In this document: positions 7,072-37,779 of the stretch, piece by piece
Layout: each line of letters starts with the position of its first letter
Position numbering within the stretch: position 1 is the first letter of the stretch
Source: Ruegeria sp.
GTDB lineage: Bacteria > Pseudomonadota > Alphaproteobacteria > Rhodobacterales > Rhodobacteraceae
Direction of reading: 5' to 3'
Length of the DNA: 44,119 nucleotides
Assembly (NCBI RefSeq): GCF_028066395.1
Contig: NZ_JALCBM010000008.1
Location: 9,995-54,113 of the forward strand
Notes under the pieces: model-generated
What the model was told of the DNA's origin: nothing
Seen by the model: the letters and a program-made list of their open reading frames with translations, nothing else
Database searches by the model: none
Position numbers and translations under genes: made by a program

Positions 7072-7485
7072 AGAACGAATGCGCTGGGCTGGCGGTTCTA
7101 TCAAGAGCTGAAGCCAAAGGCGGCTAATCGGAAGTTCGCGGCGGTCACAACACCACCAATAACGTTCGGCTATCTCGATGCGGCAAAACTGTCGCGCGGC
7201 AAAACGCTTGAGACGTCGGCATTCGCGCGACGGTTGCTACATGCGGCCCGCTACGAGTTCGGGTCGAAAATTGGGCTGATCATATCGGCTATCAAACTAG
7301 CATTGCGCGATGGGAACCAAACCCTGGAACAAAGTCACTTCGCGGGCGCCTATCGGAAACAGAAGCGTTGTGTTGATGCGTTGAACCCCTTCATTGTAGA
7401 GAATTTCCGCTCCATTAAGACGGGTCAGCTTCTCAGCGGTGCAGAGCTAGAGATAGCGCCAGCAACCAAGAGGGGGGCTGCATAA
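7072..7485 (+). pseudogene. tniB remnant, C-terminal part only
   Basis: The frame is open from 7072 to TAA at 7483-7485. The last ~90 residues resemble the C-terminus of the TniB transposition ATPase: FARRLLHAARYEFG, then a helix, and DALNPFIVENFRSI close to the end. Walker A and B motifs, which lie earlier in TniB, are missing, so about two thirds of the gene is lost. A TTG at 7234 is the best start if anything is still translated. The stop overlaps the tniQ start as TAATG, which preserves the native tniB-tniQ coupling. The residues before 7200 are not clearly TniB and may be unrelated sequence at the truncation junction. Confidence 0.65.
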
Positions 7486-9350: not shown

Positions 9351-9360
9351 AGGTGTTGAG

Positions 9361-9918
9361 ATGAGCAGAGAAAGCAAATTCCTGAGTTTGGTGCTTCGGC
9401 ACAAACCTGAAGAGATTGGTCTTCAGCTCGACAGGCATGGCTGGGTTCGCGTTGAAGACCTGCTGCGGAAGCTGAAGAAAGCCAACCGCAAGCTAAGCCG
9501 CGACGAACTCGTTCAGCTTGTCGAAGGTAACGATAAGAAGCGCTTCACCCTGTCTGATGATGGCCAGCGCATCAGGGCAGCCCAGGGACACTCAATTGAT
9601 GTGGATCTGGGCCTGGAACCCCAACGCCCACCGGATGAACTATACCATGGCACCGCCAGCGCCAATTTGGATGCAATATTTGCCGACGGGCTAAATCCTG
9701 GGCGTCGCAAGCAGGTTCATCTTTCATTGGACCCTGATACAGCCGAGCGCGTCGGTCAGCGGCACGGAAAGCCGGTTGTTCTACGTGTCGAGGCGCAACG
9801 CATGTATGAGGACGGTTTTGAGTTCTTTCGTGCTGACAACGGTGTTTGGCTCACAGACAAAGTGCCCGCGACCTATCTGGGGTTCGGTATGATCGCAGAG
9901 CAGTGGCAATGCACCTGA
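9361..9918 (+). CDS. kptA: RNA 2'-phosphotransferase (Tpt1/KptA family)
   Basis: A 185-residue enzyme of the Tpt1/KptA family, which removes an internal RNA 2'-phosphate by transfer to NAD+. In fungi this finishes tRNA splicing; the bacterial role is uncertain. Seen here: SKFLSLVLRHKPEEIGL with the catalytic Arg-His at 13-14, HGWVRVEDLL, IRAAQGHS, the NAD-binding YHGTA, and VHLSLD. The start at 9361 is preferred over in-frame upstream codons because MSRESKFLSLVLRH is the normal N-terminus and GAAGGTG lies just upstream. The gap to tniQ is ten bases, so the two are probably co-transcribed, which makes kptA a likely passenger of the element. Confidence 0.93.
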   Translation: MSRESKFLSLVLRHKPEEIGLQLDRHGWVRVEDLLRKLKKANRKLSRDELVQLVEGNDKKRFTLSDDGQRIRAAQGHSIDVDLGLEPQRPPDELYHGTASANLDAIFADGLNPGRRKQVHLSLDPDTAERVGQRHGKPVVLRVEAQRMYEDGFEFFRADNGVWLTDKVPATYLGFGMIAEQWQCT

Positions 9919-10432: not shown

Positions 10433-11404
10433 ATGCGTGGTGGAATCCCGTTCTTTTTCGGCGGATTGATCGCTGTAGCCCTGCTAATGCTATTCGGTTG
10501 GTCGGTGTATCAAATGATACAGGAGGTTTTGGCGCATTGCGGCCATGTGGAAGGTCAACCGCCTGTGGATTGCCAGCCTCCCGACACACCGCTAGTACGA
10601 GAGGGGCTGATCTATGTTGTCACAACCGTGGGCGGTCTGGTCTCGGCACTAGTTATTGCCGTACTCAGCGTCACTAGACCGGGTGGTGCCCCCGAGATGG
10701 CGGGTTTTTCGCCCACCGGTAGATGGACGCGCCGGCTGACGAATGGCGTTGTTTCGCTTTATCTGATCTTATGGCTCATCGCGGGCCTCAGCGCCTTGGT
10801 GTACGGTGTGATGTGGTACCCCGGCATCCTGCCGACGTTAGGCGATATCGGTACAACCTGGCTCGGCCTCGCCGTATCAGCAACCTATGCTTATTTCGGG
10901 CTGAATCCGCCGGCAAAAACCGAAAGAGCGGACGCAGAAGGACCTCGGACCGAAAGGACGACTGGCGATCTGGTGCTGCATCAGAAAGTTCCCAATGCCA
11001 GTGAAGTTGCCAGTTCCGGTGCGCTGGTCAAACGCATCAACAGAACAGACCCTGAATTTGCCCAGCTTGTCAGCAACCAAAACGCGCAGATCATATTCAA
11101 GGATGAGGAAGGTACCGGCGCCGACAGGGTGATGTCGGCGCGGCTGATGGAAAAGCTCGACAAGCTGGCTACAGCTGTGGCGGCAGAGTGGAGTGGAGTC
11201 AAACTGCGCGTGACAGAAGCGTGGGATGAAGACGGCGAACATGCCAGCACCTCGTTGCACTACGAGGGCCGCGCTGCAGACCTGACGGTGTTTCCGCTGG
11301 ATGGCGACAAGCTGGGTCGTTTGGGGCGGTTGGCCGTCGAGGCGGGATTTGACTGGGTCTTCTTTGAGGACTCCAGCCACATTCATGTATCCGTCCGCAC
11401 CTAG
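10433..11404 (+). CDS. multi-pass membrane protein with a C-terminal Hedgehog N-terminal signalling-type (zinc DD-peptidase fold) domain
   Basis: This 323-residue protein has hydrophobic segments near residues 6-28, 57-80, 104-127 and 140-157, a linker, and a C-terminal domain (about 215-323) strikingly like animal Hedgehog N-terminal domains. Blocks seen: FKDEEGTGADR, VKLRVTEAWDEDG, SLHYEGRAADL, LAVEAGFDWVFFE and HIHVSV. Positions matching the Sonic hedgehog zinc ligands are H276, D283 and H318; E312 and H270 match its pseudo-catalytic residues; E225, E226, D231, E262, D265 and D267 match its calcium ligands. There is no Hint autoprocessing domain and no N-terminal palmitoylation-type Cys. 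Bacterial Hh-like domains are known and share the fold of zinc D-Ala-D-Ala peptidases, so a peptidase or metal-dependent binding role is possible. Loop 1 carries two cysteines (36 and 47). It stands 63 bases upstream of the first giant gene, suggesting one transcript. Confidence 0.88.
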   Translation: MRGGIPFFFGGLIAVALLMLFGWSVYQMIQEVLAHCGHVEGQPPVDCQPPDTPLVREGLIYVVTTVGGLVSALVIAVLSVTRPGGAPEMAGFSPTGRWTRRLTNGVVSLYLILWLIAGLSALVYGVMWYPGILPTLGDIGTTWLGLAVSATYAYFGLNPPAKTERADAEGPRTERTTGDLVLHQKVPNASEVASSGALVKRINRTDPEFAQLVSNQNAQIIFKDEEGTGADRVMSARLMEKLDKLATAVAAEWSGVKLRVTEAWDEDGEHASTSLHYEGRAADLTVFPLDGDKLGRLGRLAVEAGFDWVFFEDSSHIHVSVRT

Positions 11405-11467: not shown

Positions 11468-14400
11468 ATGACGTTAGTGCAAAGATCTTTCCGCTTGTTT
11501 GGCAAGTTCCGGTTCGGACGCCGACCTGATGAGAGCGACGCTCAACCAACTCTTGGTAATCTGTTGGAAATTTTTCATGCGCCGTATCCGGGCGAGCAGG
11601 GATTACGCAGTTTTGCGCGAATACGTCGTGTTGGTCCAGATGATCCGCTGCCTGCGCCACCGACGGAGGCCGAACTTCCACTTGTCGAAGACAACATTTT
11701 TCTCGATGACGCACGCGATGGGATCGAGGCGGAGCTGAGGACACAAGCCAACGTCACCTTCTGGATCAGTGAACCGCCAGAAAATCACGCCGGAACCGGC
11801 GGGCGACGGTTGTTTCTGTTTGACGCCCTCTGTTTGGATCAGTTCGTGCAGAGCACGGCCCAAATCGCGTCGGACCGCTACCCGCTGGTTCCGCGCTTCA
11901 CTGAGGATTACCGGCGTCGCAGTTCTAGGGTGACGTTCGGCAGTGGACCAAATACTTTCCTGATGCGGCTGGAGCTTGGCTTTGCCATGCCATTGCCGAT
12001 GGGTAGCCGGGCGGAGATGTCGGACGGACCTGGCGGAGCGTTGTGCCTAGGAGGCACATACAACACGACCCATGCCACTGCGGATGAACTTACTGTCTCA
12101 CAAACGACTCTGATCGGACCATCGAACGATACGACGACCGTTAGCCGCCGAAGCCGGTTCGGCCGCTACGGCGTCGGGGAAAACCCGCCAGGCAATAGGC
12201 CGATTATCCGCATCAGTGAGGCCCGAGGCGCCCCCCAAACGCGAAGCCTGCTGGCCGCGTTAGGGCTTGTGGGTCAGAGTGAGGCGTCAGCCAGCGATCA
12301 TGTGGTGGAGTTCACATCCGCCTATATTGACGGTCCCAAGGGGCCGCACCACCACTATGCGGTGGCCTGCCGTCGCCGCGTCCAACTGGAACGTGCCACC
12401 CATGTCGACATAATTAGCGGCAAGGCACGACTGGATCTGACGAATCAACTGGGCGGGATGCTTGAAATCGACCAGCGCAGTGTGCTGGTTGAATGTCATT
12501 GGGGGATTGATCTGAGCGACGACGCGGTGCGCGCCACTCTGCATGGCGGTGCGGACCCTTTGAAAGCCAAGCTGAGGGCCAGTCTGCGCTGGACGTCTAC
12601 TGCACGGCTGGCCAACGGTACATTGGGACAGGCGGAAACCGGAGAACCACTGGATCGCAGGAATCGTTTGATCCTGCGCGCTGGCGGTTTGGAAGAAGCC
12701 GCGCGCATGTCATCGGTGGCGCGCAATGCGTTGACTGCAACCGACCGCCAGCCGCAGTCAATCTTGCCAACCCTGTCAGACTCTTCTAGCAGCTCCAGAA
12801 AAGCGGTGCCATTGATCGCCTATGCGCGCCGATTGAGCAGTTCGATGGTGCTGGGCGGAAAGCCCAGCATTCAGCGGGGCAATGCCGACTCTGACGGACT
12901 GGCGCGGTTCGGCATCACGCTGGACACCGATGTTTTGGCTGGGGCGCAACAATCGGGCCGCAGCCTCGATTACGTGCACCTGCCATCTATCAAGGAGGGT
13001 TGGCCTGAATCGAAGCCTTGGATCTATCCGCCGAGTTTCCCGCCTCCGCTGCCGATGCGCATGGTGTTGGCAGGATTTGACGACAAGGAACCAGACCCGA
13101 ACCCCACGGTCCATCACAACCACATCCGCCTTGGCCACGATGCGCGAATAATCCACGAGGCCTCGGCAAGTATATTTGACGACGGCTCCGTGAATGACGG
13201 TGTTTTCATTGGCATCGGCAATGACAATGACGCCGCGGAAACACCGCATGAGGGCGACGCTCATTTCGCCGGACTGGAGGCTCGACTTGGATCGCTGGCT
13301 TTCACACGCGCGGGACCGCTCCTCGTTGCTGACCGGTCCGCCGCACTGGGCAACCAAAGCCGGCTGGTGATCCGCAGGCGCGACCGACGCGCAATCAACC
13401 GGCGCGCCGCCGCAGCGCAGATGCCCAGCCTCGATATCGAATGGACGCTTGCGTTCGCCATCGACACCGCGCAGCCGGTCACCACGGATATCCCTCATGG
13501 GGACCGAGATGAGCGCCCGAGCGATCTATTAATTCGTGAAACGCCGCTGGATGAATTTGCGGATTTCGGGACGGTTTCGGCCTTTGAATTGACTGTCAAG
13601 GAGCGTCTGCAGGACGACCATGACCGGCGTTTGCAAGCCGAACTGCACGAAAACACCAGCGCGGGTGCTGACGGCGTCGCCACTTTCACCGTGCTCAGCC
13701 AGGCGCCGTTTGCCGCCTATCGCTTCAGCCGACGTCCGCTATCGGCAAGTGCTGATCCGACAAAACCGGTGGCAACGTATGACAGCGATGCCCGCGAATG
13801 GCGCATGCTGAAAGCCGCCGAAACCTATCAGTACACACGCCCTGCTGGCGCGACTGGTGAGGACGCCGACAAGCCCGGCATGTTGGAAATTCACGACCCC
13901 GCCCATCGCGAGGGCATCATTTTACCGGCTCTGCCGCCGGAAAACGGTGTCGAGCGTAGGCATGTGCTGGACATGCGTCTGTCGCCACCGAGCACGATCT
14001 GGGTAGATCCCAGCGATCTGACCCGAGATTTCTTTCTGCCGGAATACGCCGGGCGGGAGCTGTTCCGCCAGCGCGGTGACTTCGGACTTGGCATGAAATT
14101 GACAGCGTTGCGGTCCGAGCTTCTTTACGGCCTGTCGCTTGGCCTTCTGGTGCCGCAAGGTGATGACGGCACGCCGGGGCCGCGCATCGCCGAACTGCAA
14201 ACCTTGACTGGGCGCATGGTCGGTCGCGCCGATGGCGACACAAATCTTACCTTGCGCCAGCGCTGGCGTGACCTGCGCCGCGCTTTTGAGGAGCGGCCTG
14301 AACGGCTGGAGGTCTGGACACTGGATGCGGCGCGGGAAAACCCCTTCGTACCAGCGAAATTTAGTGACGGGCTAAGCTTTTCACTCCGCCACACGGCGCT

Positions 14401-17400
14401 TTTGGCACCGCCTGTCAAGTCTGGTGACTATGCGCCCCAAAGCGCGACACCAGGCAATGTCGAACCCCCGCGCTTTCATCCACATGGCCTGTCAGGCGGC
14501 GCGCTTTGGCCGCTGGAATCCGCCAACATCAACCGCGTCGTCGCCGGTAACCCCGTTGGCAGCGATGGCACGCTTGACGGCGTGGTCTTGTCACCACTGG
14601 GCGACAGCGGCAATCAGACGGTCCGGTTTCTGGACGGCTACGTCACCATCATCACGGAGACCCGGGACGGCCATCTTCACAAGCAGCGGGTCGAAATTCT
14701 AGGCCGTATTGCCGGGCTTTGGCACCGAGCCAAACATGTGGTGATCTATGAGCGCACCACTGCGCCGTCGCCGCAATTCACCCCCAATCCGCATCAGGAG
14801 ACCCGCTCCCGGCGACCAGTGCTCCGCAAGGTAGAGGAATTCGTTGAAATCCTGCAGCCGAGCCGCCGCTATCCCGATATGACCGATATCGCCCCGCGGT
14901 CGCGAGGCTTTCTGGAAGAGGTACGTTTCAATTCCAAGATCATCCATGTCAACAGCGCCTGGGGGCGCGATGTGGGTACGCAAGGCTGGGAAGTGCCGCT
15001 TTGGAACCGGGGTGAGGCAGAGGTGCGTCCGCAGATCTACCCCTATCCAGATGTCGCGTTCCTGACTGTGGGCGAAGGGAACAGCACAGCACCACAGGCC
15101 ATCCAGGAATGTCTGGATGTTGACAATCTTTATTTCTACACCGATGCCCAAGCCGCCGAGATCACGCCCGATACCGACGCATGGCCGGTAACGCACGGTG
15201 TGGACACCTGCAGTCTCGGATCGCCCAGTATCGTCCACAAGATCATGACTGACGCGGCCAAAGCGGCCGAAGATGGTGCAGGAAGTCGGCGCACTGCTGC
15301 TTCGCGGATATTGCCGGGACTACGGCGCTTCACTTGGCGGCTCGCACCCTCAGTGACGCGCACGCGGATCAACAATGAACGCGGAACCAAGCCGATTTTC
15401 GCGGGGCTGGAATCCGTCACACTGATGCGTGATCCAGGCGGATCTGTTAAAGATCAGGAAAGCGTGACAACAGCACTTGCTAAACGTCCGAATTTCATCA
15501 GGTTCTCAGACAATCTGCCCGCCGGTCTGTCGCTGCCGCTGAGCCGTGCCAACCCGCCTACGGACGTGCCCGCCTATCAGAGTGTCGTTGACGCGGTAGA
15601 GGCGATCAGCAACGCCGGATCTCCGAGCGTGGACCAACTACGAAACCTGGCAAACGCGCTGGACGCGCTCGCCACAAAGGACACCGTCAAACTCATCGAT
15701 GAGGTGTTGGATAAGGACAGATCCGGTCTTGTCGAAAAAGCGAAAACCCTGCTCGGCACCGCCGACAAGCTGGTCAGCCGCGCCCGAGATCTCGATGCGG
15801 AAGATTGCCAATCGATCGCGGCAAGGGCGGCTGCGACGATCCGCCAACGCGAGCTGTTGGCGATACAGATGGCGCGCCAGGCGGAATCCGAGGCATTGGC
15901 GCGTATTCGCGCGCTCGACGTTGTCAGCCGCGAAGATGCCAAGCAGATCCTCTATGACATGCTCGTCGACAACACGCGCGACCTTTTCGATCAGGCGGCA
16001 CAGGGCCTCGGGGATGTGCGCGGAGGAGTGGCCACAGCCCGCACCGTTGTCGCCGACTGGCGCAACGATGTCATTGCCGCGCTCACCCGCGCGCGCGCGC
16101 GGGTTTCCGTTCTGCGAAATAACTATGACGACAGCAAACCCTGGTCGCGCAACCGTATCGATCAGGCCCTGGCGCGTGTCAAAGCCGAGTTCGACGGCGC
16201 TGAGAAGGAGGCGCTCGCCGCACTCGATGAAGCTCGGCTGCGCCTTGCCACCGAAATCGACGCCGCGGCCAATGGGGTCGGTGCGCGGGTGACCCAAACC
16301 ATCGCGCAGGTGTTGCGCACCGAACAGAAACTACTAACGCGATACGCCAGCATCGCGGATGCGGTGATCAATGGCGCGGTTGCCACCTCAGATCAGATCG
16401 ACAAGCTGCCAAGCCAGGCCAAGCTCGATGCGGCAGTAGCTGAGCTGGATACCAAGGCGAATGGGCTTAGCGACGGCACCATCAAAGACAATGCGCTAGC
16501 CACTGTTGCCACGCTGAATTCTGCAATCGTTGCCATCGATATCGACACGCGAAAATCTGATGCGAAAACAATGATCAAAAAAACGCTGGAGGTCACCGAA
16601 AGATCGCTCACGGACATCAGCAAGGCCACCACGAAGGCCGCCAGCGATGCCGCCACCGCGCTTCAGGATGTTCAGACGCTGATCTCGGCTGCCCAGACGG
16701 CGGCAAATGAGTTCGTCGACGAAGAGACCGGGGAACTCAAAGGCTTTGCCAACCAACTGCACGGTGAAATCTCCGCCGCCGCAGAAGAGGTTGCACAGGC
16801 GCTGAAGGACGAGTTGCGCCAGTGGAAAGACGAAACCGATGCGCTCGATCAGGCGGTGGCAGAGGCCGAAGCCTGGGTCGATACCAATAAACGTATTGCC
16901 GAAAATGCCGCCAATCAGGCGTTGAGCGCCATCGATCAATGGCTGGCGTTCTTTGACGACCGTCTGGAAGCTGCCGAAGATGTTCTGAACAACCAGTTAC
17001 GCCAGCAATTCGCAGCGCAGGTGATAAACCCCGCGGTCGATGCGGTTTTTGAAACAACCAACTGGCCGGATCCTTCAGAGGCTGCCGCCGTGAAAGCGCA
17101 TGCCATTCTGGTGGTTCAGACCCTTGCGGACCGCTTTGAAACCAAGCTTCGGGCGTTCACAGAAATCCCGCTGGCGCAGATCGAAGAGGCGAAACAAGCC
17201 TGCATTGCGCTGATGGGTTACAAGGACAAGCTGTTTGAGGGCATCGACGCGCTGGCCACGCAGGCCGAACTCGAGATGAAGGCCGCGCTGGCGCCCTACA
17301 AAGAGCTGCTGAACGAAGTAATCGCCACTCCAGCCGACTGGGCGGAGCACGGCGCGGAAATCCTCAAAGGCACCAACAAACTGCTCGACACCACCAACGA

Positions 17401-18931
17401 GATCGGCAACCAGATTGCCGAGGCAGGCGAAAACGCACGCGCCTATCTTGATCGGGGCGCAGAAATCATCGCACGCGCCGGCGACGCCAAGCCCACCGAG
17501 TTACCGGGACTGGCCCTGCAATTGATCTCTGCGGCGACGCAAGCCCCAGAAATCGCAGCCTTCCGCACCAATGCCGACCGCATCCGCGTGCTGATGGATG
17601 ATGCCAAAGAGGTGTTGGAAACTCCTGCCATTCGAGGGGCTCTTGACCAATTGGGCGATGCACTGAAGGCGTTAGGGCTGGACTTCGATTTCAAGGAATT
17701 CGGCGACAGCTTCAATTTGGATGCCAGCAAGGAGGGCCTTCTGCGCCGTCTAATCCCCGATCTGGGCGGGATCAAGCTTTCGGATATGTTGCCGCGCGCC
17801 AACATTCCCGGCGGATTGAAGAATGCAGTCAAGGTCACCCACGATCTGGACACAAAGGCGGGCCGCGCATGGGTGCAGGCGGATGTCAATGTGCCGCTGC
17901 CCGGGCGTGAAACGCTCTTCACTATCGGTCCTTTCACGCTGTTTTTGAAGAACAGCCGCCTGACGGCTTTTGTCCGCGCCGAAGCCAGCAAGGATCAGAA
18001 AGAGGTCGCGCTGTCAGATCAGGCGCTGTTACTGACCAACATCGAGGCAGTGGTGGCCGGTCAGATCATGGTCACGCTGCAAGATGTCTCGATCAGCTAT
18101 TCCAGCAGAGATCAGCTTGATTTCAACATCGATCCCAAAAAAATCCGCATTCATCAGACCATGCGCTTCATACAGGATACGCTGGGATCCATCTTCGGCG
18201 ATGAACTGGGCGGGCTGAAATTCATCAAGGAAAGCGGCATCCCGGTTGGTGTCGAACACCAGTTCGCCATCCCGCCGATTTCATTGATGTATGGCACCTC
18301 TGGTGTTAGCAACTTGCAGATTTCGAACCGTTTTTCGCTGCGCGCGTATCCCGATTTCATCATCGCCAACCGGTTCAACCTGTCGCGCAGAGAGCTGCCG
18401 TTCCTGTTCTCGATCTTTATCATCGGCGGCACTGGCTATATTCAGGTCGACACCGAATACCGGCCCTTCGACAAACAACTCATGGTCGTGGTCGAGGCTG
18501 GCGCAGGCGGCTCAGCCGCGCTTGGTTTTGCCTTCGGCCCGGTCTCCGGCAGCGTGTTTATCACGCTTAGCGTGGTGTTGCGCTATCAAAAGCAGCTTGG
18601 CAGCGGTCCAAAAACCGATGACGGATTGTCGGTTTCGGTGGTGCTGGTTATCGCGGGCAGCGTGTCGCTTTGGGGGATGGTTTCGATCTATCTCGGGCTG
18701 ATGCTGTCAATGACCTATCACGAAAGCGGGCGCATTGACGGGCTGGGTCAGCTCTCTGTCGAGCTGCGTATCTCGCGCTGGTTCAAACTGCGGTATTCAA
18801 CCCAAGTTAAGTACCAGCTACGGAACGGCCGCGCCGCAACCCAGGTGACATCGGAAACCTCAACTTCCGGTAAATACAAGGAAGCGCTGAAAAAATTCGA
18901 GACGCTCGAGAAGGCGAGGAAGTCGCTATGA
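11468..18931 (+). CDS. giant protein of unknown function: beta-rich N-terminal region, long coiled coil, hydrophobic beta-rich C-terminus
   Basis: A single uninterrupted frame of 2487 codons with GGGGA six bases before the ATG. I recognise no family. Three regions are visible. Residues 1 to about 1370 mix short beta-like and loop segments with no signal peptide; a stretch near 1040-1110 (DGYVTIITETRDGHLHKQR, GLWHRAKHVVIYERTT) looks like a folded module. Residues about 1373-2100 are almost entirely Ala/Glu/Lys/Asp-rich helix with heptad character, a probable coiled-coil stalk. Residues about 2100-2465 are beta-rich, with alternating hydrophobic strands near 2310-2440 (SIFIIGGTGYIQV, SGSVFITLSVVLRY, SLWGMVSIYLGLML) that could be a barrel or membrane-contacting sheet, followed by a short charged helix. 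Its stop overlaps the next giant gene by four bases. The size and intact frame argue for selection. Confidence 0.85.
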   Translation: MTLVQRSFRLFGKFRFGRRPDESDAQPTLGNLLEIFHAPYPGEQGLRSFARIRRVGPDDPLPAPPTEAELPLVEDNIFLDDARDGIEAELRTQANVTFWISEPPENHAGTGGRRLFLFDALCLDQFVQSTAQIASDRYPLVPRFTEDYRRRSSRVTFGSGPNTFLMRLELGFAMPLPMGSRAEMSDGPGGALCLGGTYNTTHATADELTVSQTTLIGPSNDTTTVSRRSRFGRYGVGENPPGNRPIIRISEARGAPQTRSLLAALGLVGQSEASASDHVVEFTSAYIDGPKGPHHHYAVACRRRVQLERATHVDIISGKARLDLTNQLGGMLEIDQRSVLVECHWGIDLSDDAVRATLHGGADPLKAKLRASLRWTSTARLANGTLGQAETGEPLDRRNRLILRAGGLEEAARMSSVARNALTATDRQPQSILPTLSDSSSSSRKAVPLIAYARRLSSSMVLGGKPSIQRGNADSDGLARFGITLDTDVLAGAQQSGRSLDYVHLPSIKEGWPESKPWIYPPSFPPPLPMRMVLAGFDDKEPDPNPTVHHNHIRLGHDARIIHEASASIFDDGSVNDGVFIGIGNDNDAAETPHEGDAHFAGLEARLGSLAFTRAGPLLVADRSAALGNQSRLVIRRRDRRAINRRAAAAQMPSLDIEWTLAFAIDTAQPVTTDIPHGDRDERPSDLLIRETPLDEFADFGTVSAFELTVKERLQDDHDRRLQAELHENTSAGADGVATFTVLSQAPFAAYRFSRRPLSASADPTKPVATYDSDAREWRMLKAAETYQYTRPAGATGEDADKPGMLEIHDPAHREGIILPALPPENGVERRHVLDMRLSPPSTIWVDPSDLTRDFFLPEYAGRELFRQRGDFGLGMKLTALRSELLYGLSLGLLVPQGDDGTPGPRIAELQTLTGRMVGRADGDTNLTLRQRWRDLRRAFEERPERLEVWTLDAARENPFVPAKFSDGLSFSLRHTALLAPPVKSGDYAPQSATPGNVEPPRFHPHGLSGGALWPLESANINRVVAGNPVGSDGTLDGVVLSPLGDSGNQTVRFLDGYVTIITETRDGHLHKQRVEILGRIAGLWHRAKHVVIYERTTAPSPQFTPNPHQETRSRRPVLRKVEEFVEILQPSRRYPDMTDIAPRSRGFLEEVRFNSKIIHVNSAWGRDVGTQGWEVPLWNRGEAEVRPQIYPYPDVAFLTVGEGNSTAPQAIQECLDVDNLYFYTDAQAAEITPDTDAWPVTHGVDTCSLGSPSIVHKIMTDAAKAAEDGAGSRRTAASRILPGLRRFTWRLAPSVTRTRINNERGTKPIFAGLESVTLMRDPGGSVKDQESVTTALAKRPNFIRFSDNLPAGLSLPLSRANPPTDVPAYQSVVDAVEAISNAGSPSVDQLRNLANALDALATKDTVKLIDEVLDKDRSGLVEKAKTLLGTADKLVSRARDLDAEDCQSIAARAAATIRQRELLAIQMARQAESEALARIRALDVVSREDAKQILYDMLVDNTRDLFDQAAQGLGDVRGGVATARTVVADWRNDVIAALTRARARVSVLRNNYDDSKPWSRNRIDQALARVKAEFDGAEKEALAALDEARLRLATEIDAAANGVGARVTQTIAQVLRTEQKLLTRYASIADAVINGAVATSDQIDKLPSQAKLDAAVAELDTKANGLSDGTIKDNALATVATLNSAIVAIDIDTRKSDAKTMIKKTLEVTERSLTDISKATTKAASDAATALQDVQTLISAAQTAANEFVDEETGELKGFANQLHGEISAAAEEVAQALKDELRQWKDETDALDQAVAEAEAWVDTNKRIAENAANQALSAIDQWLAFFDDRLEAAEDVLNNQLRQQFAAQVINPAVDAVFETTNWPDPSEAAAVKAHAILVVQTLADRFETKLRAFTEIPLAQIEEAKQACIALMGYKDKLFEGIDALATQAELEMKAALAPYKELLNEVIATPADWAEHGAEILKGTNKLLDTTNEIGNQIAEAGENARAYLDRGAEIIARAGDAKPTELPGLALQLISAATQAPEIAAFRTNADRIRVLMDDAKEVLETPAIRGALDQLGDALKALGLDFDFKEFGDSFNLDASKEGLLRRLIPDLGGIKLSDMLPRANIPGGLKNAVKVTHDLDTKAGRAWVQADVNVPLPGRETLFTIGPFTLFLKNSRLTAFVRAEASKDQKEVALSDQALLLTNIEAVVAGQIMVTLQDVSISYSSRDQLDFNIDPKKIRIHQTMRFIQDTLGSIFGDELGGLKFIKESGIPVGVEHQFAIPPISLMYGTSGVSNLQISNRFSLRAYPDFIIANRFNLSRRELPFLFSIFIIGGTGYIQVDTEYRPFDKQLMVVVEAGAGGSAALGFAFGPVSGSVFITLSVVLRYQKQLGSGPKTDDGLSVSVVLVIAGSVSLWGMVSIYLGLMLSMTYHESGRIDGLGQLSVELRISRWFKLRYSTQVKYQLRNGRAATQVTSETSTSGKYKEALKKFETLEKARKSL

Positions 18932-21900
18932 GTGCTATCATTCACATCGCCGCCGAGGCGGAACCGACAGAACTTCATGGTCATGACGACGCATTGGAGA
19001 TCTTTGGCGCGCATCTTGCGATCGAGATGGACGTGGCGGATGAGGACAGCGCCGAGGCTGCGGTAGAGGCGTTTCTGACAGCACTGCCGCTAGGCAAGTT
19101 TTTCCTTTTTGCCATCGACAGTGCAAATGCCGTCACCAACCTCGGCGAACTAGACCGCGCCCACGCGGTTTCGGCCTCTGACGGCGCCGTGATGGCCTGG
19201 CTGCGGGACGCGCGCGACGCTTTTCGCGATCTGGCCAATCAGACGAAGGAATTGAGCACCGGCCTGAGATCCGACGACGATATCGCGTTCTTCAACAGCC
19301 CGTCACGCACCGACGCGGATATGCGCAACGCACGGGCGGTTGATCTGCTCAGAGCGACCGCGAAGTGGCCCGCTCCCATCGCGCAGAACGCTGGTCTGAC
19401 CGTGCCGCTGATCTGCAATATCGCGCGTGACGAGACCAGCCACAATGTGGTGGTCTTCATCGACGCGCACCTTGACGTCGATACCCTCACCTTTGCTGCG
19501 GAAGTGGATGTAAACGCTGAGATTGCGAGACTGACGGTGACAACGCCCGACGGCTCCACATTCAATATCCACACCGGAATTGTCGAGCGCTACGATGAGA
19601 GCACACTTGGCGCGCTTTTTGAAAAAACCGGCAAATTCAAGACGCTGGAAAATGCTGACGCGTTGGCACGCCTGACGTCCCGGATCGAGGAATTGGCACC
19701 GTCGCTACTGACAAGCTCTGCGATAATGGACGACATTGCGCTGAACGAAAATCTTGTGCGCACGCTTGCCGGATTGGCCGATGACGATGCCATTCCGCCC
19801 GAGACAGAATTGCCGGAGGCGGTGCTTCATTTGCTCATGCAGGCCGGGATTGTCACACTCTTCGACGTGCCGATGATCGCGTTGCAACTTCCGGCACCGG
19901 CGCCAAACAACACTGCATTCGCGGTTCCCCGCAGTGCCATTTTACAACGTCTGTCGCGTGGTATTGCAAGCAGGTTTGAGCAGGAAAATCCCGCGCTAGA
20001 TGTCGACGAGGGACTGCTGTATGCAAGGCTGCATGCCGCCCTCCACTCGATCTTAGGGACCTTGCACACCGCCGGTCCACCACAAACCCTCGAAAGGCTG
20101 TGGACCAGCCTTGCACCGGTGATCGCAGATAACGATCGCATGCCATTGCTTGAAAAAGCGGTGGTCGGCGAGATTCCGGAAGCGCGGATCGCATGGTTTG
20201 AATGGCGCGAGAAGGTTGAGGATTACTCCGCGCAGCTTGCCGAACTGGCAGTGTTGCTGGAAAGCGAAGCCGGAGCCGAGTCCTGGTTTCTCGGCCTTTG
20301 CGACAGCGCGTTTCTGAAGGATGGCGCGTTCGCAATTGATCTGGGTGGAACCGGGATTCCCGAAGACCAGATCGATCCCACGCTGACTGGGCCGGAGCTC
20401 GACGAAGCCAGGGCCAATCTGACCGCCAAACTGACCAGCCTGTATCGCGCGTTCCGGGATGATATCGAGGGCCGCTTTAACGCAGCGGAGGCGATGCGGC
20501 GTGATTTCGGTGCGCTCGTTCTGGCGGAACTATCCAAGGGCATCACGCTTGACAACCCCGATGATCTTACGTTTGCGCTCAGCGACAGCGACTGGTTCCG
20601 TCGCCGTGTGGCCGGAGTCAGCAACCCGCCCCGTGCCCTTGACGGGCTGATTGCGCCATGCATCCCGTTGCCGCTGATCAACCAGCCCGCAATCACCGAA
20701 CTTCTTGCATCAGCGTTCCATCAGCGCAGCAAAGAGATCCTCGCGAAAACCGAAGCTCTGCAGCGGTTTCGGCCGGATGCCAGCCCGCAACCATTGCCGA
20801 TCCGCATCACTGACAAAATCGATCCGGAGCAAATCGACAGAGCGAATGCAAGGACCTGCGGCCTTGGATTTCTAATCCGCTCAAAGACAGTCGACGGCTC
20901 GGCCAGCGAGGATCATCACATCAATCTTGTCGCTCTTCTCGACCGCAAGACGGATGACGCAGTAATTGCCGACCCAACGGTGCTGCCGACTCGACCAGTG
21001 ATGACTCCCGGCAGTGCGGGTCTTTTTGTGACCTATGGCGGCGCACCGCTGGCCTCACCAAACCGACCCAAGCCGGGGCAGGGCGGGGCTGATATGGACC
21101 CAGTGCAATTTGCGCAAAGCCAAATGGAAAGGCGCGTGCGCGGTTACCGGATTGAGGACTCCGCCGACACGTTACCCTTGCCGGCGCTGGCTTACGGCCG
21201 CAGATATGCCGTTGCAGGCTATTGGCTGCCGGGCTCCGGCGTGCTGCCTGCCGGTGTCCGTCGCGCCGGATCCAATCTCTTTGCGCCCGGATCACCCAGT
21301 GCGGAGTTTCACGCCCCTGACGACGCCCTGGTACCCTATCTTCGTCGCACAGCCATCGGCGACATGGAGTTGCGGACCAAGACTGATCTCCCCAAGGATG
21401 TCCATCCGTTGGCAAACGACGACCCTCGCCTTGTGCTTGAATGTTTCAACAATGGAAGGCGCCAGATAGATCTCAACAGGCGTGCCGACGGCACAGGAGG
21501 TCTGAAAGGCGAGAACCGGTTCAACGACGACGGCGTGCAAATCGGGCATGGCGGCGAAATAAGTCTTCACGGCGTGGCCTTCAGCGGCGACCTCGTCACT
21601 GATCATCTCGCAGTAAAAGTGCTTGGGGAGGCCGATGCTGAAATCGGGACCGCGACTCTGGCGTTGGATGGCGATATCTTGACGATCGTGGTCGAACTCT
21701 CGGTGCAGAGCGCCGCGTATTGGCTGCGTCTGATGTGGAAGACGGATGCGCCTACCGGCGGGTGTCTTAGCTTCAATGACCCGGCACACGAGCAGCAACA
21801 AGACAGCGCCGGGCGGCAAAGTCCGGTGGCCGTACTGGCACCGGATTCGAGTGGGTGGACCAGCGCCGCATCGCAAGACGTTACGCTCGACGCTCCGCGC

Positions 21901-24900
21901 GTGTCATTCGCCGATTTCGAATGCTGGGCGCGCAATATCTCGCTATGGGCGGACAGCGCAGGCAATACCGAAGAGGCGAAAAAGTTGTTTGCCACCCTCA
22001 GATGGGCACAGGCCGTTTTCGAGGAAACCGGCGATGCCTATGCCGAAAAGATGAACAGGCTGCCGGACCCGGCGGTCCGCTCACTGGAATTGTTTGCCGC
22101 AGGCTCCGATCATTTGGATGGAGATCGGTCACTGGCTGGGCAGGCCCACCTATCATTCGAAATCTCGCCTTATGATCCGGCAACTCTGCCGCTTCCCAGC
22201 TCGCCGGGCATCGCTGTTCCGGGAGCGAATAAGCTGACACCGGATCAGTTGAGGCAAGAAGAGGACGAGATTTTTCTAAGGAAGATCCAAGAATTGCGTG
22301 ATCTGATCGATGCCATTCATGATCGGGCGCGAGTCGTGTTCAAAATCCAGAGCGGAAGCGGCACGCGACCGAGCTTCAGTTTTGATCAGGGCCACATCCT
22401 CACCGTTCCCGAAGGCTGGGTGGTGCGTCTTGCCGCACAACCCGCCGTGCCTCGCCGCTACTTTGAGGGTATGGTTGACGGTATAGCGTTTGACAACGGC
22501 ATGCTACAACTGGCCCAAGGGTCGATCGACGAGATGGTGTTGTTTGACGGTGCAAAGCTTCAGATCGAGGCGATGACCGGCATTCCAAACGAAATGACGG
22601 TGCCCGCTTCAACACTGCAGAGCACGACACGCGGGGCTGAGCGCGCCTACGCGCTGGATTTCCTTCCCCGCGGCGAGGATCGGATTTTCGCCGCCGCCCA
22701 GTTGATTGTGCAGCAATCGCGCCCTACCGGCCGCCCTATCTATCGCTGGATCGATCCCGTGCCGAAGGGGCGTTTTGCCGAACGCCCGGTGGTTGGTATT
22801 ACGTCGTCAGCAGATCAAACCGGCGAAGTTGGCCACGTAACTGCCGCTGCACTGGACGCTTTCGAGGCCGACGCCTTTTTTGGCATCGGGCGGGATGACG
22901 CTGACCGCAAGTCGGTGATCCGCCTGCAGCCCGCACCGGCTGTCACACGGTTGGGTACACAGGAGTGGCCAGAGCGCTCCGCCGCGTATTTTCGCCACCG
23001 GTTGGAACTGCGCAGCCGTTATGTCGGTGCTATGCTCGACCCAACCCTCGCCATCGTCAGTGTCGAAGAAACGGGCGCAGCGAGATGGGCTACCCGGACC
23101 GTTATCCTTGCCGACCCACTTGCCGCCGATCTGACACGGCCGCAACTGCGCGCTTTCTTCCCGGTTCAACGAATGGTGCAGAAGGACACAAACACTCCGA
23201 TCCCACCGGTTGCTTGCGTGCTCGCCGAGCCGCCGTTTGAGCAACTTGGTCTCGCCGACCGGTTGGACGCCGACTTGAAGACTATCAACACCTATCGGAT
23301 CAACGAGGAACCGTTTGGGGATGAGGGCGAAACACGCGACCGTCTACGCGTTGATGGATTACGTAAGGAATTGGGTCCTGACCCACGGCTTAGCTACTTC
23401 CCTGTAGAAGACAAGGAGGCGCGTGCTGCGTTGTTGGCAGTCGAAGGGCCTGTTGGCCTGCATTTTGAGGCCGACACCGTCAGTGCGCCGGCCTTTTCGA
23501 ACAGCCAGTTCCTGCTTCATGTTGCTGTGGACGACACCGGCGTGGCCCTGCCCGCCGAGTTGGAGGAGAGCTTTGCCGGGGTGTCGCTGTCGCGCTACTC
23601 CGACCCTGCCTGGAGCTATGTAAGAGATATTGAAAGCCGATCTGTCCCGGTCGGTAGCTTGCCTGGGTACAGCGCGAGTTGGATTGATCTGGACGCGTCG
23701 CTCAAGATCGGGACCGACGAAACAAGCGATGTCGTTCGTATCGAAGAAACCGGCGGGCAATACACGATCAGCGTCAGTGCAACGGCTCTCTTCAAGGAAG
23801 GTGGCGAGGGTTTCAAGGAACTGTGCCAGGTCGCGGCCAATTCCGCCACGGCCTCTATTCTGATCAGGCCATTGGGCGACGACCGCTATCTGTTAAGCGT
23901 GCACAAAACGTCTGACGCTACATCCCCTGATGAGGTCATGGATCAGGGGCGCATTGATCGCCCGCAACTGATTGCATCGGTTAGTTTCAAGGCTTCAGGG
24001 ACATTGCAATTCCGCCCTGCCGTCCAGGTTCGCGCCACCCGACAGTCGGACGCGACTTTTGTCGAATGGGTCCGAACGGCACGCGATATGTCCCATGTGG
24101 CGCTGCGTGGCGAGGATGATGAAGCACAATCCGATCAGCGGCTCAGACTCGACGAATTGACACCCGTTCTTCCCACATCGGGCCGAGGCAGGCTGGTGTT
24201 CCAGAATGCGAATGCCGAGGAATGCCGGATCAGCAGTCCGATCACGCTCCGCCGCTATCCGCTGCACGTGCACCGTCACCTTGCCTTGCTGGTGCGCAAA
24301 CCATCTGCCCAGATCGGCCATCAGATCGACCTGTTTGATCAGGCTCTTCTGGCTGACGGCTGGGGGCAGGCGGTGCTGGATGTGGCACCGGGAGCTTCAG
24401 TCAGTTTGGCAGAGCTTGAAACCCGTGCAGAGATGGTTCGCGTTCAGGGCGGACCCCCCCGCAATGATGGATTGGAACGCTACAATTCGGGACATTTCGA
24501 TCTCGCCTCGTCTCGCGCCCGGCCCGTCAACGGGCAGGTGCCCAATCCGATCCGTCAAATGCGGTTGCATTTCCGGGCCGCTAACCAGCCTTTGGATCTG
24601 CGCCTACTGCGTTTCGATCTTAGGATTCCCGGTGCGCCCCAGCGCGACGAGGTTGTTCTGTCGCTTGATCCAGCCATCGTGTCCAGCCGCCGGGTCTGGT
24701 CATTTGATCTATTCTTATTTCAGCAGCCGAATGGCCCCGACGGAAACGAGCACATGCCGCGCTGGAGTATTCGCTGGCCAGGTAGCGACGAGGAACAGAA
24801 AGGTGAAATCCCGTCGCTGGCGCAGTTCTTTGGTGCGGAGTCCTTCGATCTGACAGTGGTGGATCAGGCAAATCTAACCGATGATCGCTGGCTGGACGTG

Positions 24901-25101
24901 TCGTTGCTGCACAGCGTCAAGTTGCGCGGATCAAGCCAGTCGCCGCTTGCTGACAGCTTCGATTTCGACTGGCTTTTCGGGACTGTGTCCGGAGACGAGG
25001 CCTTACCTAACGCGCTCACTCCGGTACGGCTCAACCACCTGCCAGAAGCGCAGGCTCGCTTGATCGGGCAATCGGACCCACTGGACATCCAATTCAAGTA
25101 G
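18928..25101 (+). CDS. second giant protein of unknown function
   Basis: An intact 2057-codon frame that starts inside the stop of the preceding giant gene (ATGA), implying translational coupling and probably fixed stoichiometry or a complex. I recognise no family. The first ~570 residues are acidic and mainly helical (MSAIIHIAAEAEPTELHGHD at the start, no signal peptide). The rest is mostly beta-like with many Asp and Pro, interrupted by a charged helix near 1101-1140 (QLRQEEDEIFLRKIQELRD). The extreme C-terminus (DPLDIQFK) shows no sorting signal. I see no transmembrane segment, kinase loop, protease motif or tandem repeat. Together with the Hh-domain protein and the first giant it forms a 14.7 kb co-directional unit. 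Confidence 0.85.
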   Translation: MSAIIHIAAEAEPTELHGHDDALEIFGAHLAIEMDVADEDSAEAAVEAFLTALPLGKFFLFAIDSANAVTNLGELDRAHAVSASDGAVMAWLRDARDAFRDLANQTKELSTGLRSDDDIAFFNSPSRTDADMRNARAVDLLRATAKWPAPIAQNAGLTVPLICNIARDETSHNVVVFIDAHLDVDTLTFAAEVDVNAEIARLTVTTPDGSTFNIHTGIVERYDESTLGALFEKTGKFKTLENADALARLTSRIEELAPSLLTSSAIMDDIALNENLVRTLAGLADDDAIPPETELPEAVLHLLMQAGIVTLFDVPMIALQLPAPAPNNTAFAVPRSAILQRLSRGIASRFEQENPALDVDEGLLYARLHAALHSILGTLHTAGPPQTLERLWTSLAPVIADNDRMPLLEKAVVGEIPEARIAWFEWREKVEDYSAQLAELAVLLESEAGAESWFLGLCDSAFLKDGAFAIDLGGTGIPEDQIDPTLTGPELDEARANLTAKLTSLYRAFRDDIEGRFNAAEAMRRDFGALVLAELSKGITLDNPDDLTFALSDSDWFRRRVAGVSNPPRALDGLIAPCIPLPLINQPAITELLASAFHQRSKEILAKTEALQRFRPDASPQPLPIRITDKIDPEQIDRANARTCGLGFLIRSKTVDGSASEDHHINLVALLDRKTDDAVIADPTVLPTRPVMTPGSAGLFVTYGGAPLASPNRPKPGQGGADMDPVQFAQSQMERRVRGYRIEDSADTLPLPALAYGRRYAVAGYWLPGSGVLPAGVRRAGSNLFAPGSPSAEFHAPDDALVPYLRRTAIGDMELRTKTDLPKDVHPLANDDPRLVLECFNNGRRQIDLNRRADGTGGLKGENRFNDDGVQIGHGGEISLHGVAFSGDLVTDHLAVKVLGEADAEIGTATLALDGDILTIVVELSVQSAAYWLRLMWKTDAPTGGCLSFNDPAHEQQQDSAGRQSPVAVLAPDSSGWTSAASQDVTLDAPRVSFADFECWARNISLWADSAGNTEEAKKLFATLRWAQAVFEETGDAYAEKMNRLPDPAVRSLELFAAGSDHLDGDRSLAGQAHLSFEISPYDPATLPLPSSPGIAVPGANKLTPDQLRQEEDEIFLRKIQELRDLIDAIHDRARVVFKIQSGSGTRPSFSFDQGHILTVPEGWVVRLAAQPAVPRRYFEGMVDGIAFDNGMLQLAQGSIDEMVLFDGAKLQIEAMTGIPNEMTVPASTLQSTTRGAERAYALDFLPRGEDRIFAAAQLIVQQSRPTGRPIYRWIDPVPKGRFAERPVVGITSSADQTGEVGHVTAAALDAFEADAFFGIGRDDADRKSVIRLQPAPAVTRLGTQEWPERSAAYFRHRLELRSRYVGAMLDPTLAIVSVEETGAARWATRTVILADPLAADLTRPQLRAFFPVQRMVQKDTNTPIPPVACVLAEPPFEQLGLADRLDADLKTINTYRINEEPFGDEGETRDRLRVDGLRKELGPDPRLSYFPVEDKEARAALLAVEGPVGLHFEADTVSAPAFSNSQFLLHVAVDDTGVALPAELEESFAGVSLSRYSDPAWSYVRDIESRSVPVGSLPGYSASWIDLDASLKIGTDETSDVVRIEETGGQYTISVSATALFKEGGEGFKELCQVAANSATASILIRPLGDDRYLLSVHKTSDATSPDEVMDQGRIDRPQLIASVSFKASGTLQFRPAVQVRATRQSDATFVEWVRTARDMSHVALRGEDDEAQSDQRLRLDELTPVLPTSGRGRLVFQNANAEECRISSPITLRRYPLHVHRHLALLVRKPSAQIGHQIDLFDQALLADGWGQAVLDVAPGASVSLAELETRAEMVRVQGGPPRNDGLERYNSGHFDLASSRARPVNGQVPNPIRQMRLHFRAANQPLDLRLLRFDLRIPGAPQRDEVVLSLDPAIVSSRRVWSFDLFLFQQPNGPDGNEHMPRWSIRWPGSDEEQKGEIPSLAQFFGAESFDLTVVDQANLTDDRWLDVSLLHSVKLRGSSQSPLADSFDFDWLFGTVSGDEALPNALTPVRLNHLPEAQARLIGQSDPLDIQFK

Positions 25102-35601: not shown

Positions 35602-36123
35602 GTGAGTGCTATTTTTTCGGTGAAACGCCAGGTTTTGGCGCTGTTGCTGGCGTTTGTGGTCACCTGTGGACCGCTGGCGGCCGCCGCGCAGGACGCGCGC
35701 GGGCCGGTGACGCACCTGCCGCTGCCGCGTTACGTCTCGATGAAAGCGGCCGAGGGCAATGTCCGCCGCGGCCCATCCCTGACCCATCGAATCGACTGGG
35801 TCTTCAAACGCCGCGGCATGCCCCTGCAGATCACCGCCGAATACGGCAACTGGCGCAAGGTTCAGGATCGGGACGGCGCAGGCGGTTGGGTCCACTATGC
35901 CCTGTTGTCCGGCGTACGCACCGTGCTGGTCGAGCCCGAATTGCTGCCGGTCTACGCCACCCCAAATCCCGATGCCCAGATCAACGCGCATTTCGAGGCC
36001 GGGGTCGTCGCCCGTCTGGGCAGTTGCACCCCGGACTGGTGCCGAATCTCGGCGGGCGGCTACAAGGGGTGGACGCTGAAATCCAACCTTTGGGGGGTCG
36101 AGCCGTCCGAAATCCGCGAATAG
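35602..36123 (+). CDS. exported SH3-domain protein
   Basis: A 173-residue protein with a signal peptide (VKRQVLALLLAFVVTCGPLAAAAQ, cleaved near AAAAQ-DA in outline) and two bacterial SH3-like repeats. The first is YVSMKAAEGNVRRGPSLTHR...ITAEYGNWRKVQDRDGAGGW, the second LLPVYATPNPDAQ...CRISAGGYKGW. Such domains usually bind cell-wall or periplasmic partners. The start is uncertain: GTG at 35602 is chosen, but a second in-frame GTG at 35620 gives a shorter, more typical signal peptide. Neither has a strong ribosome site. Confidence 0.85.
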   Translation: MSAIFSVKRQVLALLLAFVVTCGPLAAAAQDARGPVTHLPLPRYVSMKAAEGNVRRGPSLTHRIDWVFKRRGMPLQITAEYGNWRKVQDRDGAGGWVHYALLSGVRTVLVEPELLPVYATPNPDAQINAHFEAGVVARLGSCTPDWCRISAGGYKGWTLKSNLWGVEPSEIRE

Positions 36124-36254
36124 CATACGGTTTTGTATCGAGGCGCAGACCTTTTCGACATGCTTAAGACGTTCACTCTGACAGCCCGGATATAGCTACG
36201 GAAACGCGCCCTGAATTATTTGCAAGGTGGGGTGATTTTTTGTCCAAAAACCTC

Positions 36255-36283
36255 TTGAACCCGGAAAGCAACAGTCGTAGACA
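36255..36283 (+). promoter_or_regulatory. sigma-70-type promoter of the tRNA-Gln gene
   Basis: TTGAAC (36255-36260) and TAGACA (36278-36283) are separated by exactly 17 bases, and the tRNA begins 12 bases after the -10 element. The spacing and position are what a housekeeping tRNA promoter should show. Confidence 0.75.
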
Positions 36284-36295
36284 GCCGCTCACCGT

Positions 36296-36370: not shown

Positions 36371-36663
36371 TGATTTTCCCTTTGTGCCGTCCAGCTTGAA
36401 TTTGGATTTATCCAGCTAGAACACGCAATTCGTCCAAGCAAAATTTAGACTTCGCAACACTTTAGTCTATTGGCGCAGAACAAACCCTCTCGGCTGCCCT
36501 GACACATAAACTGAACCGCCCCGGGTTTACCGGAGAGTAAAACAAACGGGCAACCTCAACCTTTAATCCCAAATCGGTACGATGCTCGCCTCAATCTCGA
36601 CACAAAAGCGGGCAATATCGGAAACGAATTGTTTCCAAGTATCACTTGTCGAGAATTGGGCTC

Positions 36664-37778: not shown

Positions 37779-37779
37779 C

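What the first reader, a model, noticed from the sequence alone, without database searches (positions are those of the whole stretch)
10433..11404. Membrane protein carrying a near-complete Hedgehog signalling-type domain
Residues 215-323 share long blocks with animal Hedgehog N-terminal domains, and every position matching Sonic hedgehog zinc ligands (H276, D283, H318), calcium ligands (E225, E226, D231, E262, D265, D267) and pseudo-catalytic residues (E312, H270) is kept. Bacterial Hh-like domains are known, but here the domain is fused to about four membrane helices and placed before two giant unknown genes, which I do not know as a described arrangement. The domain may be an active zinc peptidase or amidase, or a metal-gated binding module.
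Basis: partly seen in the sequence, partly recalled or inferred. Interest (0 to 1): 0.9.

Follow-up and report, generated by a model that had tools for sequence, protein, structure and literature searches.

The report
Bacterial Hedgehog-domain enzyme with giant partners
A bacterium carries a membrane protein whose tail closely resembles the animal developmental signal Hedgehog, with its zinc and calcium sites intact, placed in front of two giant genes of unknown function; relatives suggest it is a cutting enzyme used in conflicts between microbes, which bears on where the animal signal came from.

Summary
Window 10433-11404 encodes 323 aa: four predicted membrane helices plus a complete Hedgehog signalling domain (HH_signal E 6e-53; 55% identity to ShhN; model 0.8 A from Shh), with the zinc, calcium and catalytic positions kept. 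Membrane-anchored bacterial Hedgehogs (BacHh) are published (Roelink 2018; Jagers & Roelink 2021), so domain and anchor are known. What I did not find in print is the setting. The gene heads a tight operon with two giants (2487 and 2057 aa, no Pfam family). The trio recurs in two near-identical alphaproteobacterial MAGs; a Phycisphaerae MAG has a bare Hh gene before homologous giants. Searching with the anchor alone found a cassette whose anchor carries a different tail with the H-x6-D/H-x-H motif, again followed by two giants, unrelated by sequence to the first pair. Elsewhere Hh domains sit in contractile-injection loci, beside lysozyme genes, fused to VanY, and in a trypsin/NucA/bDLD2/NACHT-like conflict locus. 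Best reading: a calcium-stabilised zinc peptidase, the exchangeable enzyme of accessory, conflict-type systems. Activity, substrate and topology are untested; four helices would put the domain in the cytoplasm, against the published periplasmic model.

The parts
10433..11404 (+). Membrane-anchored bacterial Hedgehog protein (BacHh), 323 aa
   Evidence: ORF; PF01085 E 6.4e-53; 67, 67 and 61% identical to the L009, L010, L011 proteins over full length
10442..10540 (+). predicted membrane helix 1 (residues 4-36)
   Evidence: AlphaFold2 secondary structure; hydropathy peak 2.21
10601..10669 (+). predicted membrane helix 2 (57-79), strongly conserved in relatives
   Evidence: conservation
10721..10816 (+). 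predicted membrane helix 3 (97-128)
10832..10897 (+). predicted membrane helix 4 (134-155): weak by hydropathy (1.15) but strongly conserved; decides topology
10967..11398 (+). Hedgehog signalling domain (179-322); Zn H276, D283, H318; Ca E225, E226, D231, E262, D265, D267; catalytic E312; H270, H316
   Evidence: model block means of pLDDT 81-98 from residue 181 on, rmsd 0.8 A to 3ho5_H
11468..18931 (+). GiantA, 2487 aa: N-terminal part, conserved middle (about 650-1390), long helical part (about 1390-2050), conserved C-terminal domain (about 2070-2460)
   Evidence: starts 63 bases after the Hh stop; no Pfam family
18928..25101 (+). GiantB, 2057 aa, start overlaps the GiantA stop by 4 bases
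   Evidence: no Pfam family, no PDB match at E 1

Best explanation
The gene encodes a membrane-anchored bacterial Hedgehog (BacHh): a zinc metallopeptidase domain of the LAS/M15 kind, stabilised by calcium, on a four-helix anchor. It is the enzymatic member of an accessory three-gene operon, anchored peptidase - GiantA - GiantB, in which the peptidase is exchangeable. Most likely it cuts peptide bonds in peptidoglycan (own or a competitor's) or in a protein target when the system is deployed in a conflict between cells or with phage; the giants would be the large structural, delivery or sensing part. Shown here: identity of the domain, intact active-site residues, recurrence of the cassette, a sister cassette with another tail, conflict-type settings of relatives. 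Inferred: catalysis, substrate, conflict role, functional tie to the giants, role of the giants.
For: Domain and ligands. Recurrence: L009 and L010 (MAGs whose GiantA is 98.9% identical over the 660 residues shared) have anchored Hh 53 and 54 bases before GiantA; L012 (Phycisphaerae) has a bare Hh 151 bases before a GiantA homologue, then a GiantB-family protein (profile without it: E 6e-36). In the GiantA tree these lie in two clades separated at 100/100, while the fetched stretches of the other members hold no Hh. Exchange: the anchor alone found G576, a 354-aa protein with the same anchor (E 6e-61) and a non-Hh tail with H-x6-D and H-x-H, 50 bases before a 3863-aa and then a 2447-aa gene. 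GiantB of L023 is followed after 22 bases by an Extensin-like_C protein (M15-like fold, recalled). Hydrolase company of other Hh domains: VanY fusion and phage lysozyme gene (L013), its lysozyme homologue (L015), Amidase_2+M23 (L011), annotated N-acetylmuramidase and M15_4 (L004). Conflict settings: baseplate TIGR02243 over cut-off and CIS13 (E 2e-31, below its cut-off) in L016, L017 syntenic; trypsin-NucA-subtilisin, bDLD2-trypsin and NPHP3_N/NACHT-like genes in L011, matching 'System 3' of PMC7159879; defence-type genes near giant pairs: SIR2 315 bases from L007, Septu-like PtuA/PtuB about 5 kb from L008, QatA/PifA-like KAP about 3 kb from L005 with an insertion element between, BrxHI-like about 7 kb from L023.
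Against: No activity was or could be tested; Shh keeps this site yet was reported to signal not as a hydrolase (title of a reference in PMC6027127). If four helices span, the domain faces the cytoplasm, where there is no peptidoglycan. Of 20 giant pairs tabulated, 3 have Hh and 1 a Pfam-supported wall-type peptidase; for most of the rest none was recognised, though many neighbours were not profile-scanned, and the L007/L022 candidates rest on motifs that no library confirmed (L022 also has a sub-threshold U49 match). Of 9 Hh-bearing genomes or records searched, 7 have no GiantA, L011 among them, so the tie is not obligatory. The window genome gave no bDLD2 match (its controls were silent too), and no PADLOC family was found for Hh or GiantB, nor for the L011 NACHT-like protein.
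Confidence: 0.55

Rival explanations
1. Periplasmic housekeeping peptidoglycan peptidase, as proposed for BacHh by Roelink: three membrane segments, domain in the periplasm, trimming the cell's own wall, giants incidental.
For: M15/LAS motif intact; published model; three strong hydrophobic segments and a weaker fourth, found by my hydropathy scan in only 2 of 4 homologues.
Against: Rare accessory gene: in the order only the window's own genome has a full match (1 of 390; two others are partial, profile up to position 91, one of them over the cut-off), and none of the 20 listed same-genus genomes matches; a fourth helix is modelled and its sequence is strongly conserved.
Confidence: 0.17
2. 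Cytoplasm-facing maturation protease: the membrane-bound Hh peptidase processes the giants (or another system protein) rather than the wall.
For: Four-helix model with basic loop 2 in 3 of 4 homologues; anchor-plus-peptidase is the first gene before giants in window, L009, L010 and G576; a proteolytic cascade is proposed for the L011-type system.
Against: The L012 Hh has no anchor; wall-hydrolase company of other Hh domains; no cleavage site was sought.
Confidence: 0.15
3. Non-catalytic binding module: zinc and calcium sites are structural, and the domain recognises a ligand as animal Hedgehog does.
For: Animal Shh acts as a receptor ligand and its site is called pseudo-active by others.
Against: Catalytic Glu and both flanking His kept in 11 of 11 bacterial domains; another H-x6-D/H-x-H tail on the same anchor; VanY fusion; no clear Patched or Smoothened homologue in BacHh bacteria, as stated by PMC6027127.
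Confidence: 0.1
4. Chance neighbourhood: Hh and the giants are separate cargo of one variable region.
For: The region right of the ribonucleotide reductase gene is variable: none of the window's genes beyond it was found within about 17 kb in 6 of 6 relatives fetched (matches over 40% identity); TniQ- and KptA-like genes lie just upstream.
Against: Same order and close spacing in window, L009, L010 and L012, and the same logic with unrelated giants in G576; both partners are rare.
Confidence: 0.08

Closest known systems
BacHh of Bradyrhizobium/Mesorhizobium/Rhizobium (PMC6027127, PMC8052667)
   Same: C-terminal Hh domain with Zn, Ca and catalytic residues behind several membrane segments
   Different: reported with three segments and a periplasmic domain, among lysozyme, amidase, trypsin and endonuclease genes; here four helices are modelled and two giants follow
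Animal Hedgehog signalling domain (ShhN; PDB 3ho5, 1vhh)
   Same: 55% identity, same fold (rmsd 0.8 A), same metal ligands
   Different: no Hog/HINT domain (protein ends right after the Hh domain), membrane anchor in front; Shh H134 is Glu
LAS/M15 D-Ala-D-Ala peptidases (VanY, Peptidase_M15_3, Extensin-like_C)
   Same: H-x6-D and H-x-H zinc motif; VanY is fused to Hh in L013 and an Extensin-like_C gene follows giants in L023
   Different: distant in sequence; activity of BacHh unproven
'System 3' trypsin-NucA conflict system (Kaur et al. 2020, PMC7159879)
   Same: L011, with the same anchored Hh, has trypsin-NucA-subtilisin, bDLD2 and NACHT-like parts nearby
   Different: none of these recognised next to the window gene; the held text of that paper does not contain 'hedgehog'
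Extracellular contractile injection systems
   Same: in Paenibacillus L016 the Hh gene lies two genes after a CIS13-like gene, in a locus with a baseplate gene
   Different: no such genes recognised among the window ORFs scanned

Membership tests
Hedgehog signalling domain, PF01085 (BacHh) | significant full-length profile match | tested here: met
   E 6.4e-53, profile 11-161 of 161
Hedgehog signalling domain, PF01085 (BacHh) | zinc triad, calcium ligands, catalytic Glu | tested here: met
   13 positions compared, 12 Shh-identical; the exception is H134, Glu here
Hedgehog signalling domain, PF01085 (BacHh) | Shh-N fold | tested here: met
   TM 0.93 by target length, rmsd 0.8 A
BacHh as published | three membrane segments, domain in periplasm | tested here: inconclusive
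   four helices modelled; fourth weak by hydropathy
Animal Hedgehog protein | C-terminal Hog/HINT autoprocessing domain | tested here: not met
   protein ends at residue 323; no second Pfam domain
LAS/M15 metallopeptidase | H-x6-D and H-x-H motif | tested here: met
   H276-D283 and H316-I-H318
LAS/M15 metallopeptidase | hydrolysis of peptidoglycan peptides | not testable with these tools
   no experiment possible
Contractile injection system cargo | baseplate/sheath genes in the locus | tested here: not met
   none among the 19 window ORFs scanned with Pfam; baseplate gene present in L016
Kaur System 3 | NucA endonuclease and trypsin genes | tested here: not met
   none among the 19 window ORFs scanned; both present in L011

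The most novel reading that the evidence does not exclude
An undescribed class of three-gene conflict system exists: a four-helix anchor carrying an exchangeable LAS metallopeptidase (Hedgehog-type or another), followed by two giant proteins that can themselves be exchanged. The Hedgehog signalling domain of animals descends from such bacterial effector enzymes, so that the ligand domain joins HINT and SuFu as a Hedgehog-pathway part taken from bacterial conflict systems.
Probability: 0.35. Interest if true: 0.85.

Novelty: new variant of a known kind. Interest (0 to 1): 0.62.

Why it matters
The Hedgehog ligand is a central animal signal whose origin and enzymatic past are debated, and the BacHh papers I read leave its bacterial function open. 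Finding the domain as a seemingly exchangeable enzyme next to giant gene pairs, in contractile-injection loci and in a death-like-domain/NACHT-like conflict locus gives that debate a testable setting, and offers an anchor-free bacterial version (L012, 148 aa) to assay. The giant pair itself is a rare family without a Pfam name; its C-terminal GiantA domain reaches Alpha- and Betaproteobacteria, a Streptomyces and a Phycisphaerae MAG.

Tried and rejected
Viral and phage collections: no Hh relative and no anchor relative. PADLOC: nothing for Hh or GiantB; a LmuB match to GiantA at E 0.004 lies in its helical part and was set aside. NCBIfam: nothing usable. Giants against the PDB by profile: only helical, coiled-type proteins for GiantA, none for GiantB. 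AlphaFold2 of the GiantA C-terminus was poor (mean pLDDT 50); its porin-like Foldseek hits (best E 1e-4, TM about 0.2-0.3, rmsd about 20 A) are only a hint of long antiparallel strands. Apolipoprotein Pfam hits in 3 of 6 GiantA members were read as helix matches. Two PF01085 matches in the order (G175, E 6e-5, 24 bits, over the cut-off, profile 3-89; G322, E 9e-4, below it, profile 3-91) cover only the first part of the profile, without the zinc and catalytic half, and were dropped from the Hh set. Of 14 genomes with anchor matches, the 12 other than G000 and G576 (E 5.8e-6 or weaker) were dropped, as was G1474 (E 6e-4); four of the twelve were looked at in part and their surroundings looked by eye like transporter permeases, untested. 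That all giant loci carry wall hydrolases was rejected. An empty-site test failed: the window's right-hand genes are not near the reductase gene in 6 of 6 relatives. The family around L011 held no second Hh in 394 genomes. The Hh tree does not resolve where ShhN attaches; it had one animal row with a long branch. GiantB of L012 has no BLAST match to the window's GiantB; its membership rests on matches to other family members and a profile built without it.

Full report
1. The observation. The ORF at 10433-11404 (+) codes for 323 residues. Pfam's Hedgehog signalling domain matches residues 172-320 with E 6.4e-53 over profile positions 11-161 of 161. Against the PDB all 25 sequences matched at E 0.001 are named Hedgehog proteins, best E 1.3e-45. 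Over 143 aligned positions 78 (55%) are identical to ShhN; the 11 bacterial domains range from 53 to 59%. Thirteen metal and active-site positions were compared: in the window protein twelve are Shh-identical, the exception being Shh H134, which is Glu in all 11 bacterial domains. The zinc triad, the Glu177 equivalent and the H135 and H181 equivalents are kept in 11 of 11; the position of D267 differs in five (L012, L015, L016, L017, P. gei) and E262 is Asp in two (L016, L017).

2. What is already published. Roelink (PMC6027127; parts 1-3 of 4 read) described about a dozen bacteria with highly conserved HhN domains, over 50% identical to ShhN in some, a few in Rhizobium and Bradyrhizobium behind three predicted membrane segments, with the domain placed in the periplasm and precise function unknown. 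Jagers and Roelink (PMC8052667; passages read) call them BacHh, class them with M15A peptidases, and list lysozyme, amidase, M23, trypsin, matrix-metalloprotease-like, endonuclease and S53 neighbours in Mesorhizobium and Bradyrhizobium. So the fusion itself is not new. Seven paper searches combined Hedgehog with bacterial, peptidoglycan, contractile-injection, STAND/conflict and toxin-origin terms or sought the conflict systems themselves. Among the papers listed (one search listed 20 of 11,505, 25 of 247, 15 of 49; the rest in full) I saw none on an Hh domain beside giant gene pairs or in contractile-injection loci; the one paper holding both 'contractile injection system' and 'hedgehog' uses the latter for something else.

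3. The operon. The Hh stop and the GiantA start are 63 bases apart and GiantA and GiantB overlap by 4 bases. GiantA (2487 aa) and GiantB (2057 aa) have no Pfam family. GiantA has a conserved middle, a long helical part and a conserved C-terminal domain. Homologous pairs lie on Rhizobium and Sinorhizobium plasmids, in two contigs of the viral collection and in scattered genomes: 3 of 289 in a class sample and 5 of 398 in a phylum sample, the window's own counted in each. The C-terminal GiantA domain also reaches Cupriavidus, Diaphorobacter and Streptomyces. In the three most distant GiantA relatives (L040-L042) the N-terminus looks like a twin-arginine signal, read by eye.

4. Hh and the giants. 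The genome-contig scan found 9 Hh loci, to which I add the window and Pararhizobium gei: 11 in all. In 4 of 11 (window, L009, L010, L012) the gene directly before GiantA is the Hh gene, 63, 53, 54 and 151 bases away; L009 and L010 are near-identical, so three are independent. L012's second giant matches other GiantB members (BLAST E down to 4e-8) and a profile built without it (E 6e-36), though not the window's GiantB directly. Both partners are rare, so chance adjacency in two phyla is improbable (inference). The GiantA tree of 11 C-terminal domains splits at 100/100 into a clade with window and L009 (others: L005, L021) and one with L012 (others: L006, L007, L008, L022, L023, L039); no Hh domain was found in the fetched stretches of those others (L023's GiantA is cut by its contig end, so what precedes it is unseen). 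Either Hh was recruited twice or an old tie was often lost. Against an obligatory tie: of 9 Hh-bearing genomes or records searched with the GiantA C-terminal profile, 2 match (L009, L012) and 7 do not, among them L011, whose anchored Hh is 61% identical to the window's.

5. A sister cassette. A profile of the anchor alone (window residues 1-160) found, in 337 genomes of the class, one strong match besides the window (G576, E 6e-61). Fifty bases on begins a 3863-aa gene, overlapped at its end by a 2447-aa gene, same strand. Neither resembles GiantA or GiantB by BLAST (E 1e-3) or profile (E 0.01; best at full sensitivity 0.19). In L023 the GiantB homologue is followed after 22 bases by an Extensin-like_C protein (E 3.4e-8, over its cut-off). 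L022 and L007 have downstream genes whose motifs suggest, by recall, NlpC/P60-like and L,D-transpeptidase-like enzymes; Pfam at E 0.1 and the PDB gave no support. Of the 20 giant pairs tabulated, these are the only ones beside the Hh loci where I recognised a wall-type enzyme; many neighbours were not profile-scanned.

6. Settings of other Hh domains. Paenibacillus L016: Hh gene in a locus with a TIGR02243 baseplate protein (over cut-off) and a CIS13-like protein (E 1.8e-31, below that model's cut-off), one 364-aa gene lying between CIS13 and Hh; L017 is syntenic. Algibacter L013: VanY and Hh in one protein next to a phage lysozyme gene; Lacinutrix L015 is syntenic with a 70% identical lysozyme gene; the rest of that cluster is unassigned. 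L011: Amidase_2+M23, matrixin, trypsin-NucA-subtilisin and bDLD2-trypsin proteins and an NPHP3_N (over cut-off)/NACHT-like (below) protein, which fits 'System 3' of Kaur et al. (PMC7159879; section 32 and passages read), whose held text lacks the word hedgehog. P. gei L004: astacin, trypsin-PLD and M15_4 proteins, a sub-threshold caspase match and an annotated N-acetylmuramidase, all within about 16 kb. L014: short Hh protein with a lipoprotein-like start, by eye. PADLOC families match genes near the giant pairs of L005, L007, L008 and L023, at 0.3 to about 7 kb; not for the L011 NACHT-like protein.

7. Topology. Hydropathy gives three strong segments in each of four anchored homologues and a weaker fourth in two of them, although the fourth sequence (TTWLGLAVSATYAYFG) is nearly the same in all four; loop 1 holds two conserved Cys and more acidic than basic residues, loop 2 is basic in 3 of 4. 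AlphaFold2 models four helices. Four spanning helices with the N-terminus inside put the Hh domain in the cytoplasm, against the published three-segment model. Of the other seven bacterial Hh proteins, six (L004, L012, L013, L015, L016, L017) show no export signal or membrane segment at their start to my eye and one (L014) looks like a lipoprotein. This is unsettled and decides between a wall enzyme and a processing enzyme.

8. Mechanism and rank. I favour a zinc peptidase used as the enzyme of an accessory conflict-type system (0.55). Shown: domain, site residues, recurrence, sister cassette, settings. Inferred: catalysis, substrate, conflict role, role of giants. Zhang et al. (PMC3482391, passages) and the lipocone paper (PMC12419801, passages) derive the HINT domain and SuFu from bacterial toxin systems; the passages seen do not speak of the signalling domain, and the present contexts would add it. 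That evolutionary step is an inference: the Hh tree did not resolve the place of ShhN.

Noticed in passing
window 7485-9918: TniQ-family protein (PF06527) overlapping a KptA/Tpt1 RNA 2'-phosphotransferase gene (PF01885) just upstream of the Hh operon; no other Tn7-type genes recognised among the window ORFs scanned.
   Followed up: no
L078 and L077 (G576): Four-helix anchor with a non-Hh H-x6-D/H-x-H tail followed by 3863- and 2447-aa giants unrelated by sequence to GiantA/GiantB.
   Followed up: partly
L013 9113-10438; L015 9320-10438: In L013 a VanY domain is fused before the Hh domain, beside a lysozyme gene, in a gene cluster shared by Algibacter and Lacinutrix that I could not assign.
   Followed up: partly
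L012 4521-4967: Bare 148-aa Hh ORF without evident signal or anchor before giant homologues in a Phycisphaerae MAG; a convenient assay protein.
   Followed up: partly
L040, L041, L042: Distant GiantA relatives of about 2600-3060 aa begin with RR-type, twin-arginine-like signals (by eye), which would mean export of very large folded proteins.
   Followed up: no
L004 19200-20438: The P. gei Hh protein has a DUF5675-like N-terminal part (E 0.0012, below the cut-off) and lies on a plasmid typed as conjugative.
   Followed up: no
window 36001-43000: Lower-GC block (0.46-0.56) with glycosyltransferase and DUF2142 membrane protein genes.
   Followed up: no
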